This document shows, one piece after another, positions 1 through 8,303 of a stretch of 8,303 nucleotides of DNA; positions within the stretch are counted from its first letter, which is position 1, and each line of letters starts with the position of its first letter. The position numbers and the translations under genes are program-made. The stretch spans positions 1-8,303 of the forward strand of contig ONTY01000058.1 of NCBI GenBank assembly GCA_900320815.1. The letters run 5' to 3'. This DNA is from an uncultured Pseudomonadota bacterium (GTDB lineage Bacteria; Pseudomonadota; Gammaproteobacteria; Burkholderiales; Burkholderiaceae_C). Under the pieces are notes generated by a model. That model ran no database searches, was not told where the DNA came from, and worked only from the letters and a program-made list of their open reading frames with translations.

Positions 1-920
1 TTCCAGCCCGGCACATACACTGTGGACAGGCGTCGCCGGGCGAGTTTTCCAAAACCATCATCTTTGGCAATGGCCAGCCCCGGCGCCGCAATATGAATGC
101 CCAGCATCACGCAGCCGCTGCCGAGTGCGCGCAGCGAAATGGCATCGTCAATTTCCGTGGTTTGAGAATCGTCAATGGAAAAGGCTGCTTCCGACGCTTC
201 TGGCAAATCGCCAAACGTGTCTTGCAACGGCGCCAAAGGCGGGAATCCCTCGCCTTGCGGAAAATATTCAAACAAAAACCGCTTCCAATGAAAATCGTAC
301 GCTGCGCCAATCGCCCCTGCCTTTTGCAGCAGCGCCAGCGGCGCCAGCCCGGTGGTGCGCGCCGCCTGCACCACCGCTTTATATTCCGGCGCATTTTTAT
401 TGGGCTTGAACAAAATCGGGAAAAGCTGCACGCGCACCTCATCCGGCGTGCGGCCAGCGGCCAGCTCTGCCGCCCAGGCATCCACTTGTTCGGCAATTTT
501 CTTGCGCTTTTCAATAGCCGCCAGCGCCTGCGCCACAATATCCGCTGGCGCTTTTTTAAAGCGCCCTTTACCCGCACGCCGAAAATAATGCGGCGCGCCG
601 TGCAACGCCAGCAGCATCGCCGCCTGCTGCACCGCGCCGGGCGCCGCGCCAAAATACTCGGCGGCCACCTGCGCAAAGCCAAACTCGCCCTCCGGCGCCG
701 CCTCCCACGCCAGCGGCAAATCCACGTCAGCGGCCTGCGCCTGCGCCTGCTCCAGCAGCGCCGCCGGCTCCGGCGACGCGAAGCGCAACACCTGCGCCGC
801 CGCCTTCACCTTCACGCGCCGGCCAGCGGGCAGCTCTACCTGCGCAGACGCCTCGGTCTCGGAAAGAATGCGGCCCGCCAGAAAGCGCCCCGCCTCGTCA
901 AACAACACATTCATCGTCAT
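1..920 (-). CDS. RNB-family (RNase II-like) exoribonuclease, N-terminal part, truncated by window edge
   Basis: This minus-strand frame is open from ATG 918-920 to the left edge (about 306 codons), so the C-terminal part lies outside the window. Seen: the protein starts MTMNVLFDEAGRFLAGRIL, then a charged KVKAAAQVL stretch, a helical middle region with FKPNKNAPEYKAVVQAART, and from about residue 247 the start of the RNB catalytic domain, FSIDDSQTTEIDDAIS, followed by LGIHIAAPGLA and RRLSTVYVPG. By alignment with E. coli RNase II, Asp250, Asp258 and Asp259 correspond to catalytic Asp201, Asp209 and Asp210; the Asp207 position is Glu256, which I recall as usual in the betaproteobacterial branch. 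Known for the family: Mg-dependent 3'-to-5' hydrolysis of RNA in the cytoplasm. ATG 912-914 (MNVLFDE) is an equally good start by family resemblance; neither has a clear Shine-Dalgarno. It is transcribed away from the membrane-protein array and is probably unrelated to it. Confidence 0.9.
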   Translation of the reverse strand, partial: MTMNVLFDEAGRFLAGRILSETEASAQVELPAGRRVKVKAAAQVLRFASPEPAALLEQAQAQAADVDLPLAWEAAPEGEFGFAQVAAEYFGAAPGAVQQAAMLLALHGAPHYFRRAGKGRFKKAPADIVAQALAAIEKRKKIAEQVDAWAAELAAGRTPDEVRVQLFPILFKPNKNAPEYKAVVQAARTTGLAPLALLQKAGAIGAAYDFHWKRFLFEYFPQGEGFPPLAPLQDTFGDLPEASEAAFSIDDSQTTEIDDAISLRALGSGCVMLGIHIAAPGLAIAKDDGFGKLARRRLSTVYVPGW

Positions 921-1326
921 AGGGGAGCGGATTGTGGCAGCGCGCGGCAGGAACTGCTGCGCTGCAAAAAGTGAAGCGCGCTACCCCTCAGCCTGCGCGC
1001 ACAACAAGGCCGAGGTGAAACCCATTGGTTTTGGCAAAGCAAATCACCACTCGTCCCGACAGCATTGACTTTGGGTATACATGCTGCTACCCGCAGCAAC
1101 TGCCGGCAATCAAATACAGGAACCACAGCCGCCGAGTCCCCACAGCCAATACAGTTTCAGCCCTCCACCTTTCGGTATCCGGCAAACTCAAAATCAGCAA
1201 CTCCATTCCATGCGCCACGCATGTGTGTTTTTGCATTTTCCAGCACCCTCGCCTGCATCTTGGCCGCTTTCAGGCGTGAGCGGATACGATTCATATCTGC
1301 CTCCCATCTTTTTCTGCACAGCCGCC
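921..1326. other. Divergent intergenic region, no convincing gene
   Basis: This stretch of about 400 bases lies between the minus-strand ribonuclease and the plus-strand array, so it should hold promoters for both directions. I see no tRNA, no strong inverted repeat and no convincing -35/-10 pair. The nearest candidates are a GTATAC sequence at 1075-1080 and TTGACT at 1065-1070, but their spacing to each other is wrong. The frame of the first array gene stays open upstream to ATG 1081, but the 82 extra residues are proline- and glutamine-rich and have no counterpart in the paralogues, so I treat it as non-coding. Confidence 0.6.
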
Positions 1327-2067
1327 ATGCCCAATCACCCTGCCCCTGACCACATCCCGCGCGTGTGGCGCGCCGCGTGCCAAAAACCGCTGCTGTGGCT
1401 GCCTGCCGCTTTGACAATAGTGACCGCACAGAGTGCAGTGGCTGCGGCGTGGATAGTGGTGGTTACAGTCACAGAAAACAGCAGCGGCTTTTTTGCGGCA
1501 GTGTGTATTCTTGTGCTGATGCCTCTCTCCATATCAGGCGTGCTACCGCTGCTGACTTTAATATTTTCCGGGGCGGCGCATCGGCATTTTCTTCCTGCCG
1601 TTCAGAATGCACATCCATTGCGCCGCCTGCTGCACGCCATTTTTTTCAGTGCGTGGCTGACAGCACTGCTTTTGGCTGTTTATGCAGGCGCGCTGTGGCT
1701 GTGGTTTTCTATCACCGCCTCCCGCCCCACAGTTTTTGCAGCGGCCAGCATTGCGTGCATATTCCTTCTTGCTGCGTGCAGCTTGTGGCTGGTTCTGTTG
1801 ATACTGCTGGCGCAAGTTTTGTCGGCGTGCTGTCTGCCATTTTTCACCGCCCTCATCCACGCCAGCCGTGCTGCACTGCACCCCGCGTGTTCTGCACACG
1901 CCGCCACGGTTGCCGCACTCACCACCATCGCCATCGCCCTGCATATTACACTTGACATAACAACGGCGCCGCTGCTGTTGCTCGCCATCACCGCTTACGC
2001 TTTTGCGCTGGACGCGCTCATCGTCCCCTGGCTGATGGCGCGCAAGATATTATTTGAATATTCTTGA
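1327..2067 (+). CDS. Polytopic membrane protein, short-type module S1
   Basis: This 246-residue protein of unknown function is the first copy of the array. It starts MPNHPAPDHIPRVWRAAC, then KPLLWLP at about residues 20-26. About six hydrophobic segments follow, with a basic loop HPLRRLLHA between the second and third. The short-type block LPFFTALIHASRAALHP (HASRAAL at 178-184) follows the long fourth segment, and PWLMARKI (234-241) closes the last segment. The ATG at 1327 was chosen because MPxxxxxIPR aligns with the S3 paralogue; there is no Shine-Dalgarno. Relative to S3, about 12 residues (LPATRSIHWIIT) are missing before VWRAA, so part of the N-terminal block is lost. It ends at TGA 2065-2067, four bases before the next ATG, so translation is probably coupled. 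The inner membrane is the expected location. Assignment to a BPSS1780-like family rests on resemblance from memory. Confidence 0.8.
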   Translation: MPNHPAPDHIPRVWRAACQKPLLWLPAALTIVTAQSAVAAAWIVVVTVTENSSGFFAAVCILVLMPLSISGVLPLLTLIFSGAAHRHFLPAVQNAHPLRRLLHAIFFSAWLTALLLAVYAGALWLWFSITASRPTVFAAASIACIFLLAACSLWLVLLILLAQVLSACCLPFFTALIHASRAALHPACSAHAATVAALTTIAIALHITLDITTAPLLLLAITAYAFALDALIVPWLMARKILFEYS

Positions 2068-2071
2068 AAAT

Positions 2072-3355
2072 ATGAATCACGAAAAATATCTCCCCATGCC
2101 TGCAGCTCCTCTCCCCTCTCCCACCGTACAAGCCACATGGCATATGCAGCCCGCTCGAGTGCCCGCGCTGCACGGACTGCGCTGGATTGTTGAAGCCTGG
2201 CGCATCATTGTTCAAAAGCCGCTGCTGTGGCTGCCCATCGGTTTGGCGCTTGGCGTTGTGCAGACATTTTTCTCTGTCATACTCCACGATTCATCCCCCT
2301 GGGCCGTGCTCCTTTATATGCTGCATATGTATATGGCTTTGGTGGTGGCCATCGTGATTCAGCGGCGCATCGGAGCGCCAATTGAGCCGATATTTGGCCC
2401 GCCGATGCCGCAGCGCCTGGCGTGGCACAAATGGGGGGTGCAAATTCTCATCTTTCTACCCGTCCACATCCTCATCCACGGGGCACTTGCCTGGCAATTG
2501 CGCTGCGAATTGGCTGGCAATATATCGCTGCTCATTGCCCTGCCGCTGGCGGCAGTGCTGGCGTGGCAGCTTCTCCTTCTTCTCGGCATTGGCAGCGGTG
2601 CCTATGCCCATACCAATCCCCTGCTGGTGTTTCGGCGCGCCGCAGTGCATATCATCGCCTCGCTGGTGGGTGTATTCATTGTTGTTGCCGCGCCCTATTG
2701 CATCCGTGCGCTGTATTTATTTTCTGATTGGCTTCTCGATAGTGCGCCACCTCTATCAGCGGCGGCATTTTTGAGCACTGCTGCACCTGTTTTGTCTCTT
2801 GCCCTCGCCACCTGGGCGCTGCTGGCGCAGGCGCTCGGTGCCATGCTCAACCTCCCATTGGCCGCTGCGCCCGCCCGCGCCGCCCGCACCATGTGGCGCA
2901 ACGCCCCGGCATTTGCCTTGTATCTTGCGCTGCTGGCGTGCGCCGCAGCAGGCGCTTTTATGGTGCTGGAACACCTGCCCGGCTCCGTGCTCCTGCCGGA
3001 AAATGCCGGCATTTCTAAAATCACCACGCTTGTGCGCCTTGCCGCTGCCGGCGCATGGTGCAATGTATGGCCGTATCTCGCAGGCAGCATAATCATTTTC
3101 CCAATTTTCGCCCTCACTCTCACCATCTCGCCCTGGCTCATGGTGCGCGATATATTTCGCGACGCAGCAGTGCCGGCTGATGAAAAAGGCATGGAAAATG
3201 AGCGAGAAGCTGCTGCTCTTTCCATCACCACGCACCCCGCCCGCGTACCTTTCTTTCGCGGATTGCGCTGGCTGTGTGTCGACGTATGGCGGCAGGCATT
3301 CAAAAAGCCGCTGCTCTGGCACTGGCAGCAGTGTGGGCAGTGTGCATTTATGTGA
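2072..3355 (+). CDS. Polytopic membrane protein: long-type module L2 plus frame-broken start of a second module
   Basis: A 427-residue frame of unknown function. The N-terminus carries ARVPALHGLRWIVEAWR and KPLLWLP (residues 28-55), followed by about eight hydrophobic segments. A loop GAPIEPIFGPPMP follows the second segment, the long-type block LLAQALGAMLNLP with RAARTMWRNAPAF lies in the second half, and PWLMVRDIF is at 354-362. Then comes a charged linker (DEKGMENERE) and a new module start, PARVPFFRGLRW (389-400) to KPLLW (412-416), after which the frame runs into TGA 3353-3355 with a non-membrane tail. The intended product is therefore probably a two-module protein reaching 4014. Start options are ATG 2072 (used here, four bases after the previous stop) and ATG 2096, which matches the MP.. 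start of the L5 paralogue; neither has a good Shine-Dalgarno. Confidence 0.75.
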   Translation: MNHEKYLPMPAAPLPSPTVQATWHMQPARVPALHGLRWIVEAWRIIVQKPLLWLPIGLALGVVQTFFSVILHDSSPWAVLLYMLHMYMALVVAIVIQRRIGAPIEPIFGPPMPQRLAWHKWGVQILIFLPVHILIHGALAWQLRCELAGNISLLIALPLAAVLAWQLLLLLGIGSGAYAHTNPLLVFRRAAVHIIASLVGVFIVVAAPYCIRALYLFSDWLLDSAPPLSAAAFLSTAAPVLSLALATWALLAQALGAMLNLPLAAAPARAARTMWRNAPAFALYLALLACAAAGAFMVLEHLPGSVLLPENAGISKITTLVRLAAAGAWCNVWPYLAGSIIIFPIFALTLTISPWLMVRDIFRDAAVPADEKGMENEREAAALSITTHPARVPFFRGLRWLCVDVWRQAFKKPLLWHWQQCGQCAFM

Positions 3356-4014
3356 TATGGGAAAGCGGCCTGGAGCACGACATTATGTACCGCCCGCCGG
3401 CACTTTCACTGGCGCTGCTGCCGCTGTGTGCGGCATTCTTTCCGGCGCAGCTGCATGAAAAAACCGGCACAAACGCAGCGCACGTCCCTTTCTGGCAGCG
3501 CCTGTTGCACGCGCTGGTGCTGGCGCTGCCTGTTTCTGTGCTGCCGCAAATAGTGGATGCAATACTGGCCACCATACTCAATTATGGGATGCAGTCTGGC
3601 GCAATATCCATGCCGCTGCCCGCGGTGCCTGGTTTTCTCGTCACAGACAGCGCGCTGTTTGCCTGTCTGTTTTTGACGTTTTGGGCACTGCTGGCACAAA
3701 CGCTGGCAGCGCACGGCGTGCCATTTTTCTTTGCCCTCTCCCACGCCAGCCGCGCCGTGTTGCGCCCTGTGTTTGTGCTGCATATTGTGGCGCTCTCGTG
3801 CCTGGCTGCATGGCAATCCGGGATACTCAGCATTCTCATCTTTTTCCCTGACACCCTGCCGCCCCTGCTCGATGAGTTTGCCGTACCGCTTGTCTTCCTC
3901 GGTGCAGCTGCATTTCTTGCTGCCTTTATGCTGGAGGTATTGCTGGCGCCACGCATAATGATGCGTGACATGTTCGCCAGCATGCCTGCAGAAAAACTTG
4001 AAAACCATGCCTGA
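3286..4014 (+). CDS. Short-type module S2, continuation in a shifted frame (probable frameshifted half of the preceding gene)
   Basis: This frame encodes the body of a short-type membrane module but not its N-terminal signature, which sits in the overlapping frame ending at 3355. Seen: hydrophobic LALAAVWAVCIYVIW, a loop with HVPFWQRLLHALVLALP, the block LLAQTLAAHGVPFFFALSHASRAVLRP, and an end segment with LAPRIMMRDMF, finishing ENHA. With one extra base near 3318 it would continue directly from KPLLW of the preceding frame. ATG 3286 is the first ATG in this frame and would give 242 residues, with no Shine-Dalgarno. ATG 3191 in the preceding frame may be the ancestral start of this module. 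The stop overlaps the next gene by 8 nt. It could be a pseudogene half, a sequence error, or independently translated; I favour a broken or mis-sequenced fusion. Confidence 0.65.
   Translation: MAAGIQKAAALALAAVWAVCIYVIWESGLEHDIMYRPPALSLALLPLCAAFFPAQLHEKTGTNAAHVPFWQRLLHALVLALPVSVLPQIVDAILATILNYGMQSGAISMPLPAVPGFLVTDSALFACLFLTFWALLAQTLAAHGVPFFFALSHASRAVLRPVFVLHIVALSCLAAWQSGILSILIFFPDTLPPLLDEFAVPLVFLGAAAFLAAFMLEVLLAPRIMMRDMFASMPAEKLENHA
3299..3330 (+). other. Frame break inside the L2-S2 two-module gene
   Basis: Up to TGG 3317-3319 the first frame encodes the family signature KPLLW. From GCA 3319-3321 the second frame encodes the expected first membrane segment. One additional G in the GG of this TGG (making GGG) would restore a single frame reading KPLLWALAAVWAV. 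The upstream TTC AAA AAG is not a canonical A-AAA-AAG slippery heptamer. Confidence 0.65.
4007..4014 (+). other. 8-nt stop/start overlap ATGCCTGA (S2/S3)
   Basis: The TGA of the S2 frame (4012-4014) lies inside the first codons of the next gene (ATG 4007). The context GAAAACCATGCCTGAAAAC recurs, with small changes, at two later junctions. No Shine-Dalgarno precedes it, so re-initiation by the terminating ribosome is the likely way the downstream gene is translated. Confidence 0.75.
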
Positions 4015-4846
4015 AAACTCCATCCCCCGCCTGCCTGCCACACGCAGCATACACTGGATTATTACCGTCTGGCGCGCAGCGTGGGAAAAACCGCTGTGGC
4101 TGCTTGCCCCTTTTGCCCTGGCTGCTGTGCAAATCGTGCTGCTGGCCGCCGCAGCAGCAGCCAGCGCCTGGTTCATAACGCGGGCTGAACCTCCTGGAGG
4201 CTTGACTTTTGTATTTGTCTCCACGGCACTGATATCCACCTTGTTTTTTGGAATTCTGCCGCTGCTTGTGGCGCCATTTTCTGCGGCGGCATGCCGCCAT
4301 TTTTTGCCTGTTTTTTCGGGCGTGCCACTGCAGCGCCGCCTGCAAAACGCGTGCACCTTGAGCGCACTGCTGCTGGTGCTGCTTTTCATCGTATTTCTGG
4401 CTGCACTATGGCCGTGGCATTCTTTGTTCTCCTCCACTGGCATCCTCTCAACCCGCACCCTTTTGGCTATCTATATTGTCGGCATTGTGTGCGAGTTTCA
4501 CGCAGCAGCATGTGGCATTTGGCTGGCGCTTGTGGCACTGCTGGCGCAGGCATTATTGACGTGCGGTCTGCCACTGTACACTTCCCTCACTCGTGCCAGC
4601 CGCGCTGCGCTGCGCCCTGCAGTTTTGCTGCACGCCGCCATCTTCGCTTTTTTTCCCGCCGCTGCGTTGCTGCTCAATACGCTGATGCTGAAAACACCAA
4701 GCCTGCTGCTGGAAACAATCTTTTACGGCGTTTTTCTTTATGCCTTTTTGCTAGACGCGCTCAAGGCGCCCTGGCTTATCGTGCGTGATATGTTTTTATC
4801 CCCGCCACAAGAAAAACCAGAAGAAAACACTAAAAACCATGTCTGA
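4007..4846 (+). CDS. Polytopic membrane protein, short-type module S3
   Basis: A 279-residue protein of unknown function with about six hydrophobic segments. The N-terminus MPENSIPRLPATRSIHWII leads into VWRAAWEKPLWLLAP; one leucine codon of the usual KPLLWLP is missing. A basic loop with RHFLPVF and PLQRRLQNA separates segments two and three and matches S1. The central helix LLAQALLTCGLP is followed by TSLTRASRAALRP (RASRAAL from residue 196), and the last segment ends PWLIVRDMF (255-263) with a charged cytoplasmic tail rich in Glu and Lys. The ATG 4007 start was chosen over an in-frame ATG at 3965 because it fits the overlap pattern and the MPE start of other copies. Its TGA overlaps the next ATG by 8 nt. 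It is most similar in layout to S1. Confidence 0.85.
   Translation: MPENSIPRLPATRSIHWIITVWRAAWEKPLWLLAPFALAAVQIVLLAAAAAASAWFITRAEPPGGLTFVFVSTALISTLFFGILPLLVAPFSAAACRHFLPVFSGVPLQRRLQNACTLSALLLVLLFIVFLAALWPWHSLFSSTGILSTRTLLAIYIVGIVCEFHAAACGIWLALVALLAQALLTCGLPLYTSLTRASRAALRPAVLLHAAIFAFFPAAALLLNTLMLKTPSLLLETIFYGVFLYAFLLDALKAPWLIVRDMFLSPPQEKPEENTKNHV
4839..4846 (+). other. 8-nt stop/start overlap ATGTCTGA (S3/L4)
   Basis: Same arrangement as at 4007-4014, in the context AAAAACCATGTCTGAAACC, with one base changed in the second codon. The upstream gene ends ..KNHV and the downstream one begins MSET. Confidence 0.75.
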
Positions 4847-6974
4847 AACCACTCCCTCTTCCATCCTTGTACCTACCCGTCTGCCTGCCACACGCGGCAT
4901 TGCCTGGTTTTTTGAACCCTGGCGCGCAGCCTTTCACAAGCCGCTGCTGTGGCTGCTGCTTGGCGGCATGGCGGGGCTGTGGCTGGCCGCGTTTGCCTTT
5001 GTTACCGCTTTTTTCCTGGGGCAGCCCTTGCTGGCGCTGGCCGAATTGCCCATCGCCGGAGCAGTGGCGGCGTGGGCGGCGTGGCGCTTTGTCACACGCG
5101 ATGCCGCTCCACGCCAGCCGTGGCGCACATGGGCACCTGGGGCGCTGCAGGCGGTGTTGCGCCGCGCCGCCATTGATATTGTGGTAGCACTGCCCGTGTG
5201 GCATCTCATGGGGCGCACGCCATTTGTGCTGCCGGCTCTCGCCGTGCTGCTCCTCGTGCCGCACTGCGGCGTGGAACTGGCACGCCACGCCACGGGCGCT
5301 GCCACCAGCGCGGGCGCGTGCCTGGTAGATGCGCGCGCCAGACGGCATATGACGGCGGTGAACTTGTTGCTGGCAGCGGCGCTGTGTATGGTGCTGCTGC
5401 CCGGCTGGTTTTTTGAAACTGGACTGCTGGCGGCGCTGGAAAATAGCGCAGTTCTGCTTCTTGGATTTGACCCAGCGTTCTGGGAAAGAATACCCATATT
5501 GCCTGCATTAGAAAATGCCAGCGCCCCGCTGCTGTTCCCGCTGGCGCTGGGCTTCCTGACATTTATCGCATGCCTGGCGCTGACACTGTGGACGCTACTG
5601 GCGCAGGTGCTGGCTGCGCTGCTGAATCTGCCCCTGCGAACAGCTTTGGCGCACGCTGCGCGCACCATGCATCGCAATATGCCCGCCTGCGCTGCGTACA
5701 TATGCACACTGGCGCTGTTTTGTGCGGCGTCATCCGCTGCTGCGATACTGCTGCTGCGTGGCTTTTTTATATTGGCACCGAACGTTGCCTTTGCCATCGC
5801 CTCAAAATATTCCATCAGTGTGCTGTTACCGCTGCTGTGCCTGGGTATATTTCTTATTTTCTTTGCCCTCACGCTGGAAATGCAGTTTGCCCCCTGGTTT
5901 ATGCTGCGCGATATGTTTGGCGCCGCTGCCATGCAGCCTGTGCCAGCGGCGCCAACTGAAAATGTGGCAGCAATGATGGGCTTAGCCGGGCCAGAAACGC
6001 TGCCCTCCGCTGCGTGGCGGGAGCGCCCCGCCCGCGTGCCCCTCTTGCACGGGCTGGGCTGGATTTCTGGCGCTTGGTGCCAGGTGTTTCACAAGCCGCT
6101 GCTGTGGCTGCCTGCGGGCGCGGCGCTGGCGGTGCATGGCATATTCTGGCTTGTCATATTCACGCGCGGTGCCGTGCTGCCATTGCTGGAATTTCAGGTG
6201 TTGCTGGCACTGGGCGTCATGCCGTTTTATACAAATATCACCGCCATATTCATGCAGCGCGCCATCAACGGCCCGGCGGACGCATTCATCGGCCCACCGC
6301 CGCCCGCCCCGCTGCAGCGCGCGCGCATGGTGCGTTTTCTCCCGTGGGCTATTGCGTACAACGCCGTGGTGTTTGGCGGCGTGGGCTGGATTTTCTGGCA
6401 CCATGATTTTACCCTCATCGCCCTGCCGCTTTTGTGTGTGCTGACTATGCTGTGCATTGACTGGCTTGGCTTGCGCAGCGGCTTCTACAGAAATATGGAT
6501 GCCATCATATTATCGCAACGCGCCGCGCAGCATTCATTGGTTTTGACGCTGATGCTGCTCATCATATTGGCCGCCACCGTCTATTTTGTGGTGCCGCTGC
6601 TGCCACAGCCGCTGCACCAATATCGGACAGCCATCCTATGCGCACTCTGCCTGGCGCTTGCCACATGGGCGCTGCTGGCGCAGATATTGGCGGCGCTGCT
6701 CAATTGGCCACTTGGTACAGCCCTCAAACGCGCTGCCGCTGCTCTGTGGCGCAACGCTGGCGCGTGCGCCTTATATATGCTGCTGCTCTCCGGCGCAATG
6801 TATGCTGCCACGTTCATTGCCCGCAGCACCGGCATATTGGGCACATTGCCCATCATTGGCGCGACATGGCTGCTGCTGTTCCTATTCATCATTTCTGCCA
6901 TGCTGCCGCCCTGGTTCATGGCGCGTGACATATTCAAAAAAGAATCAGACGAAACTCCGAAAACTCATGCCTGA
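4839..6974 (+). CDS. Two-module polytopic membrane protein L4a-L4b
   Basis: A 711-residue protein of unknown function made of two long-type modules in one reading frame. Module a: MSETTPSSILVPTRLPATRGIAWFFEPWR, KPLLWLL, about eight hydrophobic segments, LLAQVLAALLNLP with AHAARTMHRNMPA, and PWFMLRDMF (352-360). A Pro/Ala-rich linker of about 30 residues follows. Module b restarts at about 396 with RPARVPLLHGLGWISGAW and KPLLWLP, has a loop NGPADAFIGPPPPAP, the block LLAQILAALLNWP with RAAAALWRNAG, and PWFMARDIF (691-699). The ATG was placed at 4839 (overlap with the previous stop) rather than at the in-frame GTG 4785. This is an intact example of the fusion that is frame-broken in L2-S2. If each module has an even number of membrane spans, both would have the same orientation. 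Its stop overlaps the next gene by 8 nt. Confidence 0.87.
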   Translation: MSETTPSSILVPTRLPATRGIAWFFEPWRAAFHKPLLWLLLGGMAGLWLAAFAFVTAFFLGQPLLALAELPIAGAVAAWAAWRFVTRDAAPRQPWRTWAPGALQAVLRRAAIDIVVALPVWHLMGRTPFVLPALAVLLLVPHCGVELARHATGAATSAGACLVDARARRHMTAVNLLLAAALCMVLLPGWFFETGLLAALENSAVLLLGFDPAFWERIPILPALENASAPLLFPLALGFLTFIACLALTLWTLLAQVLAALLNLPLRTALAHAARTMHRNMPACAAYICTLALFCAASSAAAILLLRGFFILAPNVAFAIASKYSISVLLPLLCLGIFLIFFALTLEMQFAPWFMLRDMFGAAAMQPVPAAPTENVAAMMGLAGPETLPSAAWRERPARVPLLHGLGWISGAWCQVFHKPLLWLPAGAALAVHGIFWLVIFTRGAVLPLLEFQVLLALGVMPFYTNITAIFMQRAINGPADAFIGPPPPAPLQRARMVRFLPWAIAYNAVVFGGVGWIFWHHDFTLIALPLLCVLTMLCIDWLGLRSGFYRNMDAIILSQRAAQHSLVLTLMLLIILAATVYFVVPLLPQPLHQYRTAILCALCLALATWALLAQILAALLNWPLGTALKRAAAALWRNAGACALYMLLLSGAMYAATFIARSTGILGTLPIIGATWLLLFLFIISAMLPPWFMARDIFKKESDETPKTHA
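6967..6974 (+). other. 8-nt stop/start overlap ATGCCTGA (L4/L5)
   Basis: Third occurrence of the junction, context GAAAACTCATGCCTGAAACT. The upstream gene ends ..KTHA, as ..ENHA does at 4014, and the downstream gene begins MPET. Confidence 0.75.
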
Positions 6975-8055
6975 AACTGCTCTTTCCGCTCCCTGCCCCG
7001 CGTGGCATATGCAGCCAGGCCGCGTGCCCGCGCCGCACGGGCTGCGCTGGCTTGCTGGCGCTTGGCGATTGATTATGCAAAACCCGCGCTTGTGGCTGCC
7101 ATCCATGCTGGTTTTCAGCATAGTGCAGGCATTTTTTATCCTCATAAGCGCGCCGTGGTTCAGCCTGCTGATGGCACCGTACACCATGCTCGCCGCCGCC
7201 GCGCTGCTCTATGACGTGCTTGGGGAGCCAGTTGCCCCGCTCTACGGCCCGGAAGCGCCACCGCACCTGGAGCGGCGGAAATGGCTGCGGCGCATGCCCA
7301 AAGCCGTGCTGCTCAATATCCTGTTGTATGGCTGGTTGTGCTGGGTATTTGTACGTTTTGCACAGCCAGAGGCACATCCACGGGTTTTTGTGCTGCCGCT
7401 GGCGGTGGTGCTGGCATTTTCATCATTTGACCTGCTGTGCCTCTCCCACGGCACGTATGGGCGCATCAACGCCATTTTGATTATCACGCGTGCTTCGTAT
7501 CAACTGCTTGCGCTCATTCCAATTTTTTTTGTTGTCGGCACAGCGTCGGCCTGGCGCGAGCCGCTGAAAATATGGCTCACCATGCGGCTGGATGGCATTG
7601 CGCCACCGGCGTTGCTTGCCATTTTTCTCGCCGCAGTTGAATATGCCTGTGCTTTTGTCCTTGCCACCTGGATGCTGCTGGCGCAGGCAGTGGGCGCCAT
7701 GCTCAATCTGCCCCCTTTGGGCGCGGCGCTGGTGCGCGCTGCACGCGCCATGTGGCGCAATGCGCCAGCCTTTGCCCTGCATATTCTGGCGCTCTCGGCA
7801 GCAGCCGCACTCATTATCGCAGGGCTGGAGCACCTACCCTACGCCGCACCCGTGCGTATATTTTCTAGCCTTATATTCGCAGGAGCGAAAGACGTAGAAA
7901 TGAGCGCCGCTGCACTGCGCAGCGCATGGCCATTTTTGGCGTGCGCCACGCTGGTGCTCTATCTCTGTATCCCGGCCCTTTTGATACCGCATTGGCTCAT
8001 GGTACGCGACATATTCCGCGACGCCGCTGCGCCAGAAGATGAAAAAACTGAATAA
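6967..8055 (+). CDS. Polytopic membrane protein, long-type module L5
   Basis: A 362-residue, single-module protein of unknown function. The N-terminus MPETALSAPCPAWHMQPGR continues VPAPHGLRWLAGAWRL, then NPRLWLP (39-45), a diverged KPLLWLP. About eight hydrophobic segments follow. A loop GEPVAPLYGPEAPPHLERRK follows the second, the long-type block LLAQAVGAMLNLPP with RAARAMWRNAPAF is in the second half, and HWLMVRDIF (342-350) closes the last segment before the acidic tail RDAAAPEDEKTE. Its closest copy here is L2: both share AWHMQP/TWHMQP at the start, GAMLNLP and RDIFRDAA.P.DEK at the end. The start at ATG 6967 fits the 8-nt overlap. It stops at TAA rather than the TGA used by the preceding array genes and is followed by a 16-nt gap with its own ribosome binding site. 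Confidence 0.87.
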   Translation: MPETALSAPCPAWHMQPGRVPAPHGLRWLAGAWRLIMQNPRLWLPSMLVFSIVQAFFILISAPWFSLLMAPYTMLAAAALLYDVLGEPVAPLYGPEAPPHLERRKWLRRMPKAVLLNILLYGWLCWVFVRFAQPEAHPRVFVLPLAVVLAFSSFDLLCLSHGTYGRINAILIITRASYQLLALIPIFFVVGTASAWREPLKIWLTMRLDGIAPPALLAIFLAAVEYACAFVLATWMLLAQAVGAMLNLPPLGAALVRAARAMWRNAPAFALHILALSAAAALIIAGLEHLPYAAPVRIFSSLIFAGAKDVEMSAAALRSAWPFLACATLVLYLCIPALLIPHWLMVRDIFRDAAAPEDEKTE

Positions 8056-8058
8056 ATC

Positions 8059-8064
8059 AGGAGG
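8059..8064 (+). promoter_or_regulatory. Strong Shine-Dalgarno AGGAGG before ATG 8072
   Basis: AGGAGG lies seven bases upstream of ATG 8072-8074. It is the only good ribosome binding site in the array; the other genes rely on overlapping or closely spaced starts. It identifies 8072 as the intended start even though that frame ends after 30 codons. Confidence 0.75.
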
Positions 8065-8071
8065 GCTAAAA

Positions 8072-8303
8072 ATGCCGCACGCGCTGCCCCAGCCTTGGCG
8101 CAGCCCGCCCGCCTGCCCGCACTGCGCGGGCTGCGCTGGCTGTGTGTGGACGTGTGGCGGCTGATATTCCAAAAACCGCTGCTCTGGCTGCCCGTGGGCG
8201 TGCAGGAAGACGCGCAGCAAGGCGACGCACCCTTGCGGCAGCGCCTGCGGCACGCACTGACGCTGGCTCCGGCGCTGGCAGTGTTGATGTATGCGGCAAC
8301 ATT
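8072..8303 (+). pseudogene. Short-type module S6, frame-broken and internally shortened, truncated by window edge
   Basis: From ATG 8072 the frame reads MPHALPQPWRSPPACPHC and stops at TGA 8162-8164. The family signature is instead in the neighbouring frame from about 8101 to the edge: PARLPALRGLRWLCVDVWRL, QKPLLWLP, then a hydrophilic VGVQEDAQQGDAPLRQRLRHAL. One extra C in the CCCC run at 8087-8090 would join both into MPHALPPALAQPARLP. Compared with S2 (RGLRWLCVDVWRQAFKKPLLW, then about 50 residues including two hydrophobic segments before HVPFWQRLLHAL), S6 goes almost directly from KPLLWLP to the basic loop, so the first two membrane segments are missing. The copy is either decaying or affected by a sequence error. 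The rest lies beyond the window. Confidence 0.65.

What the first reader, a model, noticed from the sequence alone, without database searches (positions are those of the whole stretch)
1327..8303. Tandem array of at least eight diverged copies of one membrane module with nothing else in between
About 7 kb contains only repeated polytopic modules sharing three blocks (RVPxLHGLRW..KPLLWLP; LLAQxLxAxLNLP or LPFF followed by a basic Ala/Arg helix; PWLMVRDIF). The N-terminal block resembles BPSS1780-type betaproteobacterial membrane proteins as I remember them. I know that family as single-copy genes and do not know of a head-to-tail expansion. A dedicated array of diversified paralogues suggests a multi-subunit or variable membrane assembly, though this is speculative.
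Basis: partly seen in the sequence, partly recalled or inferred. Interest (0 to 1): 0.72.

Follow-up and report, generated by a model that had tools for sequence, protein, structure and literature searches.

The report
Eightfold tandem array of membrane proteins
A bacterium very probably of the genus Ottowia carries eight head-to-tail, strongly diverged copies (two of them damaged) of one predicted membrane-protein module, a likely distant relative of an uncharacterised family found in one to a few copies in most related genomes, and the copies likely work together as one mixed assembly in the cell membrane.

Summary
Window 1327-8303 contains only head-to-tail copies of one polytopic module: eight, the last cut by the contig end, two (M3, M8) damaged. 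M5 and M6 form one 711-aa frame, a two-module protein that recurs in three other database proteins. Three gene junctions overlap as ATGYCTGA, so translation is probably coupled. The modules match no Pfam or NCBIfam model convincingly, but in two searches of 399 genomes each (overlapping sets) the module profile's 9 non-self matches are all BPSS1780-family proteins: remote kinship, below that family's cut-off. A model of M4 (pLDDT 84) resembles CysZ and choline-transporter-like proteins. The array lies beside an RNB exoribonuclease gene, probably in the pyrF-RNB interval, where a sister genome (very probably an Ottowia from goat omasum) has one module; it probably grew in situ. The other 27 of 29 genomes of the genus gave no module match. 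Residues on the predicted cytoplasmic side are conserved, the periplasmic side varies, and metagenomic relatives look like recombinants of conserved ends with different cores. Most likely reading: paralogous subunits of one hetero-oligomeric inner-membrane assembly. Co-assembly and transport are inferred. Tandem pairs of BPSS1780 genes exist elsewhere; longer runs were not seen in the listed matches.

The parts
3..920 (-). First 306 residues of an RNB-domain exoribonuclease gene, divergent from the array; fixes the genomic place
   Evidence: Pfam RNB E 1.2e-8; 87% identical to the gene beside the single module of G044
1327..2067 (+). M1, short module, 246 aa; next to the RNB gene like the single module of G044; its N-terminal block is shorter than in relatives
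   Evidence: 47% to P0005 over 227 positions
2072..3220 (+). M2, long module; its frame runs on into M3 without a stop and ends at 3355
   Evidence: P0004 is its closest relative
3221..4014 (+). M3, short module, damaged: N-terminal block in the M2 frame, the rest in another frame (open from 3274)
   Evidence: second half of P0001 shows an unbroken relative
4007..4846 (+). M4, short module, 279 aa, start overlaps the end of M3; structure predicted
4839..5936 (+). M5, long module, first half of a 711-aa two-module protein; start overlaps the end of M4
5937..6974 (+). M6, long module, second half of the same protein
6967..8055 (+). M7, long module, 362 aa; start overlaps the end of M6
   Evidence: 78% to the first half of P0001
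8071..8303 (+). M8, short module, cut by the contig end and damaged (ATG at 8072 in another frame than the module; shorter after the KPLLWLP block than P0001)

Best explanation
Eight head-to-tail copies of one predicted membrane-protein module, probably remote relatives of the BPSS1780 family, fill the window beside an exoribonuclease gene, where they probably arose by local tandem duplication of the single module that a sister genome has there; they are predicted to share a CysZ/choline-transporter-like fold and would likely co-assemble into one hetero-oligomeric inner-membrane complex. Shown: the copies, the fused M5-M6 frame and its relatives in three other database proteins, the overlapping start and stop codons, the sister locus with one module, and the damage to M3 and M8. 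Predicted: the fold and an N-in, C-in topology. Inferred: coupled translation gives matched amounts of diverged subunits; they pair through conserved cytoplasmic-side surfaces, as M5 and M6 are joined in one chain; the fast-evolving periplasmic sides set what the assembly meets or moves, perhaps a small solute or lipid-like ligand.
Confidence: 0.45

Rival explanations
1. A recombining bank of cassettes: conserved ends serve as homology for exchange of cores, so that strains present different periplasmic faces of an inner-membrane protein, perhaps to escape phages, bacteriocins or other contacts.
For: Among P0005-P0016, P0007/P0012 and P0008/P0011 share ends but not cores, P0015/P0016 share the core but not the N end; ten triplets picked by eye gave uncorrected Fisher p from 1.5e-6 to 0.045; site permutation 0 of 500 at each of four window sizes. 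Variable parts lie on the predicted outer side.
Against: Protein-level only, from unlinked assemblies; selection on ends can mimic part of the pattern. Most window modules have their own start codons, and M5-M6 keeps its order in several lineages.
Confidence: 0.25
2. Birth-and-death relic: a duplicated gene family without a joint function, slowly decaying.
For: M3 and M8 are damaged and the module tail on C70 is split over two frames; G044 has one copy.
Against: M1, M2, M4, M5-M6 and M7 are open over full length, M5-M6 is kept open at 53-78% identity elsewhere, and codon positions differ in the way of translated genes.
Confidence: 0.2
3. A set of independent immunity or resistance proteins, each module protecting against a different membrane-acting peptide or bacteriocin.
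For: Diverged neighbours and a variable predicted outer face; a DpnII-type restriction-modification system lies on the same side of the locus.
Against: No match to a known immunity family in Pfam or NCBIfam (the PADLOC library was not searched); fusion and overlapping frames suggest joint action.
Confidence: 0.07
4. Assembly artefact that piled up copies of one gene.
For: Draft assembly of 339 contigs.
Against: Copies differ strongly from one another; clusters with the M7 and M5-M6 proteins include contigs of 98 and 108 kb.
Confidence: 0.02

Closest known systems
BPSS1780 family membrane protein (NCBIfam NF041043)
   Same: N-terminal G-W-(Q)KP-type block, helix with Ala/Ser-Arg pattern after the fourth span, RD.F-type C-terminal block; co-linear profile alignment; 9 of 9 profile matches are members
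   Different: Modules stay below the family's cut-off; eightfold, partly fused array instead of one to five copies per genome, adjacent pairs at most in the listed matches
CysZ sulfate permease
   Different: No sequence match in PDB chains at E 1 and no CysZ model in the NCBIfam hits; tandem copies and fusion
Choline-transporter-like proteins (CTL1, PNS1; SLC44)
   Different: Eukaryotic, larger; no sequence match; their transport role is itself disputed (abstract of PMC13160678 in the listing)
Silent-cassette variation loci such as vls or pilE/pilS (recalled, not searched by sequence)
   Same: Tandem related units; in relatives, conserved ends with different cores
   Different: Predicted inner-membrane proteins; most units have their own start and stop; no single expression site seen

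Membership tests
BPSS1780 family (NF041043) | Score over the curated cut-off of 90 bits | tested here: not met
   No hit for any module up to E 1 or for 17 members up to E 10; in the own genome only C153 matches
BPSS1780 family (NF041043) | Homology over the length of the domain | tested here: met
   9 of 9 non-self matches of profile A8 are members, 8 over the cut-off; hhalign 92.4% (80 columns), 67.8% (188), 61.7% (103), 29.2% (26); 97.8% over 251 columns is partly circular
CysZ | Tripod fold with two full and two partial helix pairs | tested here: inconclusive
CysZ | Recognisable sequence kinship | tested here: not met
   No PDB chain at E 1 with profile A8; no CysZ family among hits
CysZ | Sulfate flux and antiparallel oligomer | not testable with these tools
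   Known for CysZ from PMC5967866 (passages)
CTL/SLC44 | Fold | tested here: inconclusive
Silent-cassette variation loci | One expressed unit, the others without start or promoter | tested here: not met
   M1, M2, M4, M5-M6 and M7 have start codons and open frames; expression itself was not testable
Silent-cassette variation loci | Recombination between units | tested here: inconclusive
   Mosaic pattern in 12 protein relatives; no DNA, no strain series

The most novel reading that the evidence does not exclude
The locus is a module bank for an inner-membrane protein: fixed cytoplasmic-side ends and exchangeable cores let Ottowia strains build hybrid, fused and multi-subunit membrane complexes with ever-new periplasmic faces, a combinatorial variation system acting on the inner rather than the outer membrane.
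Probability: 0.2. Interest if true: 0.75.

Novelty: new variant of a known kind. Interest (0 to 1): 0.5.

Why it matters
BPSS1780-type proteins occur in most genomes of this order (281 of 300 at E 1e-5 or better), and I found no function for them in the papers searched. Here one lineage has multiplied, fused and diversified a relative. A natural set of paralogues with conserved and variable faces, a sister locus with one copy and a recurring two-module fusion gives a direct handle on how such proteins pair and what their outer face does.

Tried and rejected
Assembly artefact: unlikely, because clusters with the window's M7 and M5-M6 proteins include contigs of 98 and 108 kb. Those clusters are at 90% identity and P0002 is the window's own protein, so they do not independently confirm the damage to M3.

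Virus origin: one viral-contig scan found no relative; phage and plasmid collections were not searched. Weak family hits were set aside as helix-composition matches: DUF3149 in 4 of 17 members (best E 0.0064); glucose transporter GlcP E 0.00089, PduM 0.08, QOXA 0.24 and CrgA 3.4, one member each.

A weaker BPSS1780-like set in the relatives was looked at in 20 fetched regions: none had the G044 module, RNB, pyrF or TonB gene nearby by tblastn; one had a crcB-like match.

Against a claim of absence: with the fused-protein profile A11, 3 of 29 genomes of the genus matched at E 0.01, the third being G020 at E 0.00117. That stretch lies in a frame that reads as a DegP-type serine protease (my reading), so I count it as chance. 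Searches scored only 5 candidates per genome and did not list M1 or M3 even in the own genome, so they can miss copies.

The genome-contig scan with one protein found nothing; with A7 it found one contig. Foldseek against the PDB gave no match at E 0.001. The M7 model was too poor to search. The promoter scan found 7 sites (shuffles 3.2), none in 921-1326; of 22 terminator-like sites (shuffles 10.6) 21 lie inside the array. Paper searches, of which I saw listings only unless said: BPSS1780 (1 paper, passages read), tandem array and Ottowia terms (15 of 12,573 listed), CysZ and CTL terms (10 of 1,306), tandem and cassette terms (10 of 143), DUF7847 (1), Ottowia, rumen and goat (2), BPSS1780 family membrane (0). 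None of the listed titles describes such an array.
Full report
1. What is in the window. The window is contig C105 of a 2.1-Mb, 339-contig assembly, 81% complete. Bases 3-920 on the minus strand encode the first 306 residues of an RNB-domain exoribonuclease. From 1327 to the end one polytopic module is repeated head to tail on the plus strand: M1 1327-2067, M2 2072-3220, M3 3221-4014, M4 4007-4846, M5 4839-5936, M6 5937-6974, M7 6967-8055, M8 from about 8071. M5 and M6 are one 711-aa protein. M3/M4, M4/M5 and M6/M7 overlap as ATGYCTGA; M1 and M2 are 4 bases apart. M2, M5, M6 and M7 are a long type (345-383 aa as cut here), M1, M3, M4 and M8 a short type (M1 246, M4 279 aa).

2. More than chance. 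M2/M7 align at 41% over 373 positions (E 7e-65); M6/M7 2e-32, M2/M6 8e-28, M1/M4 2e-23, M5/M7 1e-7. Some pairs align only in one block or above E 0.001, but every module is tied to another at E 1e-4 or better. Profile comparison of long and short types gives 99.5% over 101 C-terminal columns. The DNA repeats found in eight and seven copies are the KPLLWLP and PWLMVRDIF blocks (D2 and D3). In 7 of 7 module pairs compared codon by codon, second positions are more alike than third, for example 66 against 48% for M2/M7; membrane composition adds to this.

3. Damage. In M3 the N-terminal block is in the M2 frame and the rest in another. In M8 the ATG at 8072, behind AGGAGG, is in another frame than the module, and the part after the KPLLWLP block is shorter than in P0001. 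Contig C70 of the same genome ends in the C-terminal part of a short module, likewise split over two frames. It may be the far end of M8; the gap between the contigs was not bridged.

4. Place and origin. In G044, a 97%-complete genome of the same genus, one contig reads serC-like, crcB-like (labels from memory; serC-like had no Pfam hit), pyrF (PF00215), one short module, RNB, TonB-like gene. A contig of the same length, 18,212 bases, with a 99% match is JAFRYL010000065.1, Ottowia sp. RGIG2912, goat omasum, so G044 is very probably that assembly and the window's genome an Ottowia too. In the window's genome C70 has pyrF, a DpnII-type restriction-modification system (PF02086, PF04556) and the module tail, while C105 has the array and RNB. 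The array thus probably occupies the interval that holds one module in G044, most simply by local duplication; loss from a larger array in G044 is not excluded. With profile A1, 2 of 29 genomes of the genus match, G000 and G044; with A11, 3 of 29, the third a chance match in G020. RNB was found in 26 of 29. In the other 24 no module was found in the loci around it, with about 1.5 kb upstream held in 23 and 0.2 kb in G008.

5. Relatives in protein collections. Three searches gave 4 relatives for A1 (two the window's own), 12 for the short type and 4 for the fused M5-M6 (one the window's own); each scored only about 8000 candidates. The fused protein recurs as P0018 (714 aa, 78%), P0019 (700 aa, 53%, named Ottowia sp.) and P0020 (566 aa, 54%, lacking the N end). 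The linker is about as conserved as the modules (to P0019: 25 of 40 against 132 of 231 and 144 of 287). P0001 is a fused M7-M8 type; it and P0018 both list an 8021-base contig, so they may be neighbours. In the tree M2 pairs with P0004, M7 with the first half of P0001 and M3 with its second half, support 98 or more; deeper short-type branches are weak (41-77).

6. Kinship. No module matches Pfam or NCBIfam convincingly. Profile A8 was run on 399 genomes of the family and 399 of the order, overlapping sets; 5 candidates per genome were scored. Non-self matches: 1 in the family (E 4.9e-4 per genome) and 8 in the order (E 6e-5 to 1e-3), most to the N-terminal block alone. All 9 are BPSS1780-family proteins, 8 over the cut-off. 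Each match is weak alone; that all fall in one family is telling. hhalign gave 29.2, 92.4, 67.8, 61.7, 97.8 and 96.6%; the last two used A12, 7 of whose 17 rows had been found with A8, so they are partly circular. BPSS1780 proteins in turn touch DUF7847 (6 of 20 members). A B. pseudomallei BPSS1780 mutant replicated less in cells but caused disease in mice like wild type (PMC7998038, passages).

8. Mosaic relatives. Among P0005-P0016 (rows 1-12 of the 16 in A6) ends and cores assort separately: P0007 and P0012 share both ends but not the core, so do P0008 and P0011; P0015 and P0016 share the core but less of the N end. Ten triplets picked by eye gave Fisher p from 1.5e-6 to 0.045, uncorrected; permutation of 154 informative sites gave 0 of 500 at or below the observed value for each of four window sizes. 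This points to exchange of cores between conserved ends, at protein level and across unlinked assemblies.

9. Mechanism. The fused pair kept in several relatives, the overlapping frames and the separate module types favour diverged subunits that act together; the fold suggests a permease-like or ligand-binding complex. The outer face evolves fast, and the damaged short modules and the single-copy sister show that subunit number is not fixed. I give the array and its kinship about 0.9, and the whole explanation with co-assembly 0.45.

10. Novelty. Of 300 genomes of the order 281 match BPSS1780 at E 1e-5 or better, at most 5 matches each; adjacent pairs are seen in G487, G530, G634 and G692, all of family f21, and nothing longer in the listed matches, which are truncated. 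In 41 relatives no two listed matches were neighbouring genes. The paper listings that I saw describe no such array. I file it as a new variant of a known kind.

Noticed in passing
L056 (contig C70 of the window's genome) 2367-4112: A DpnII-type restriction-modification system (adenine methyltransferase PF02086 and DpnII endonuclease PF04556) lies between pyrF and the module tail; a following 98-aa frame had no Pfam hit. It is not listed between pyrF and the module in G044.
   Followed up: partly
L044 (contig C153) 7524-8354: The genome's genuine BPSS1780 gene lies next to an APH-type kinase gene (PF01636); G310 shows a similar neighbour.
   Followed up: partly
G487:C1:5457-6910, G530:C13:307846-309287, G634:C1:184749-186184, G692:C2:898123-899547: Adjacent pairs of BPSS1780 genes about 30 bases apart in four genomes of one family of the order.
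   Followed up: no
window 921-1326: About 400 bases between the divergent RNB gene and M1 carry no module; no promoter-like site was found there on either strand, one terminator-like site at 1209-1223.
   Followed up: partly
P0014: This metagenomic short module loses the common C-terminal end, as if its frame changes near the Arg-Ala helix.
   Followed up: no
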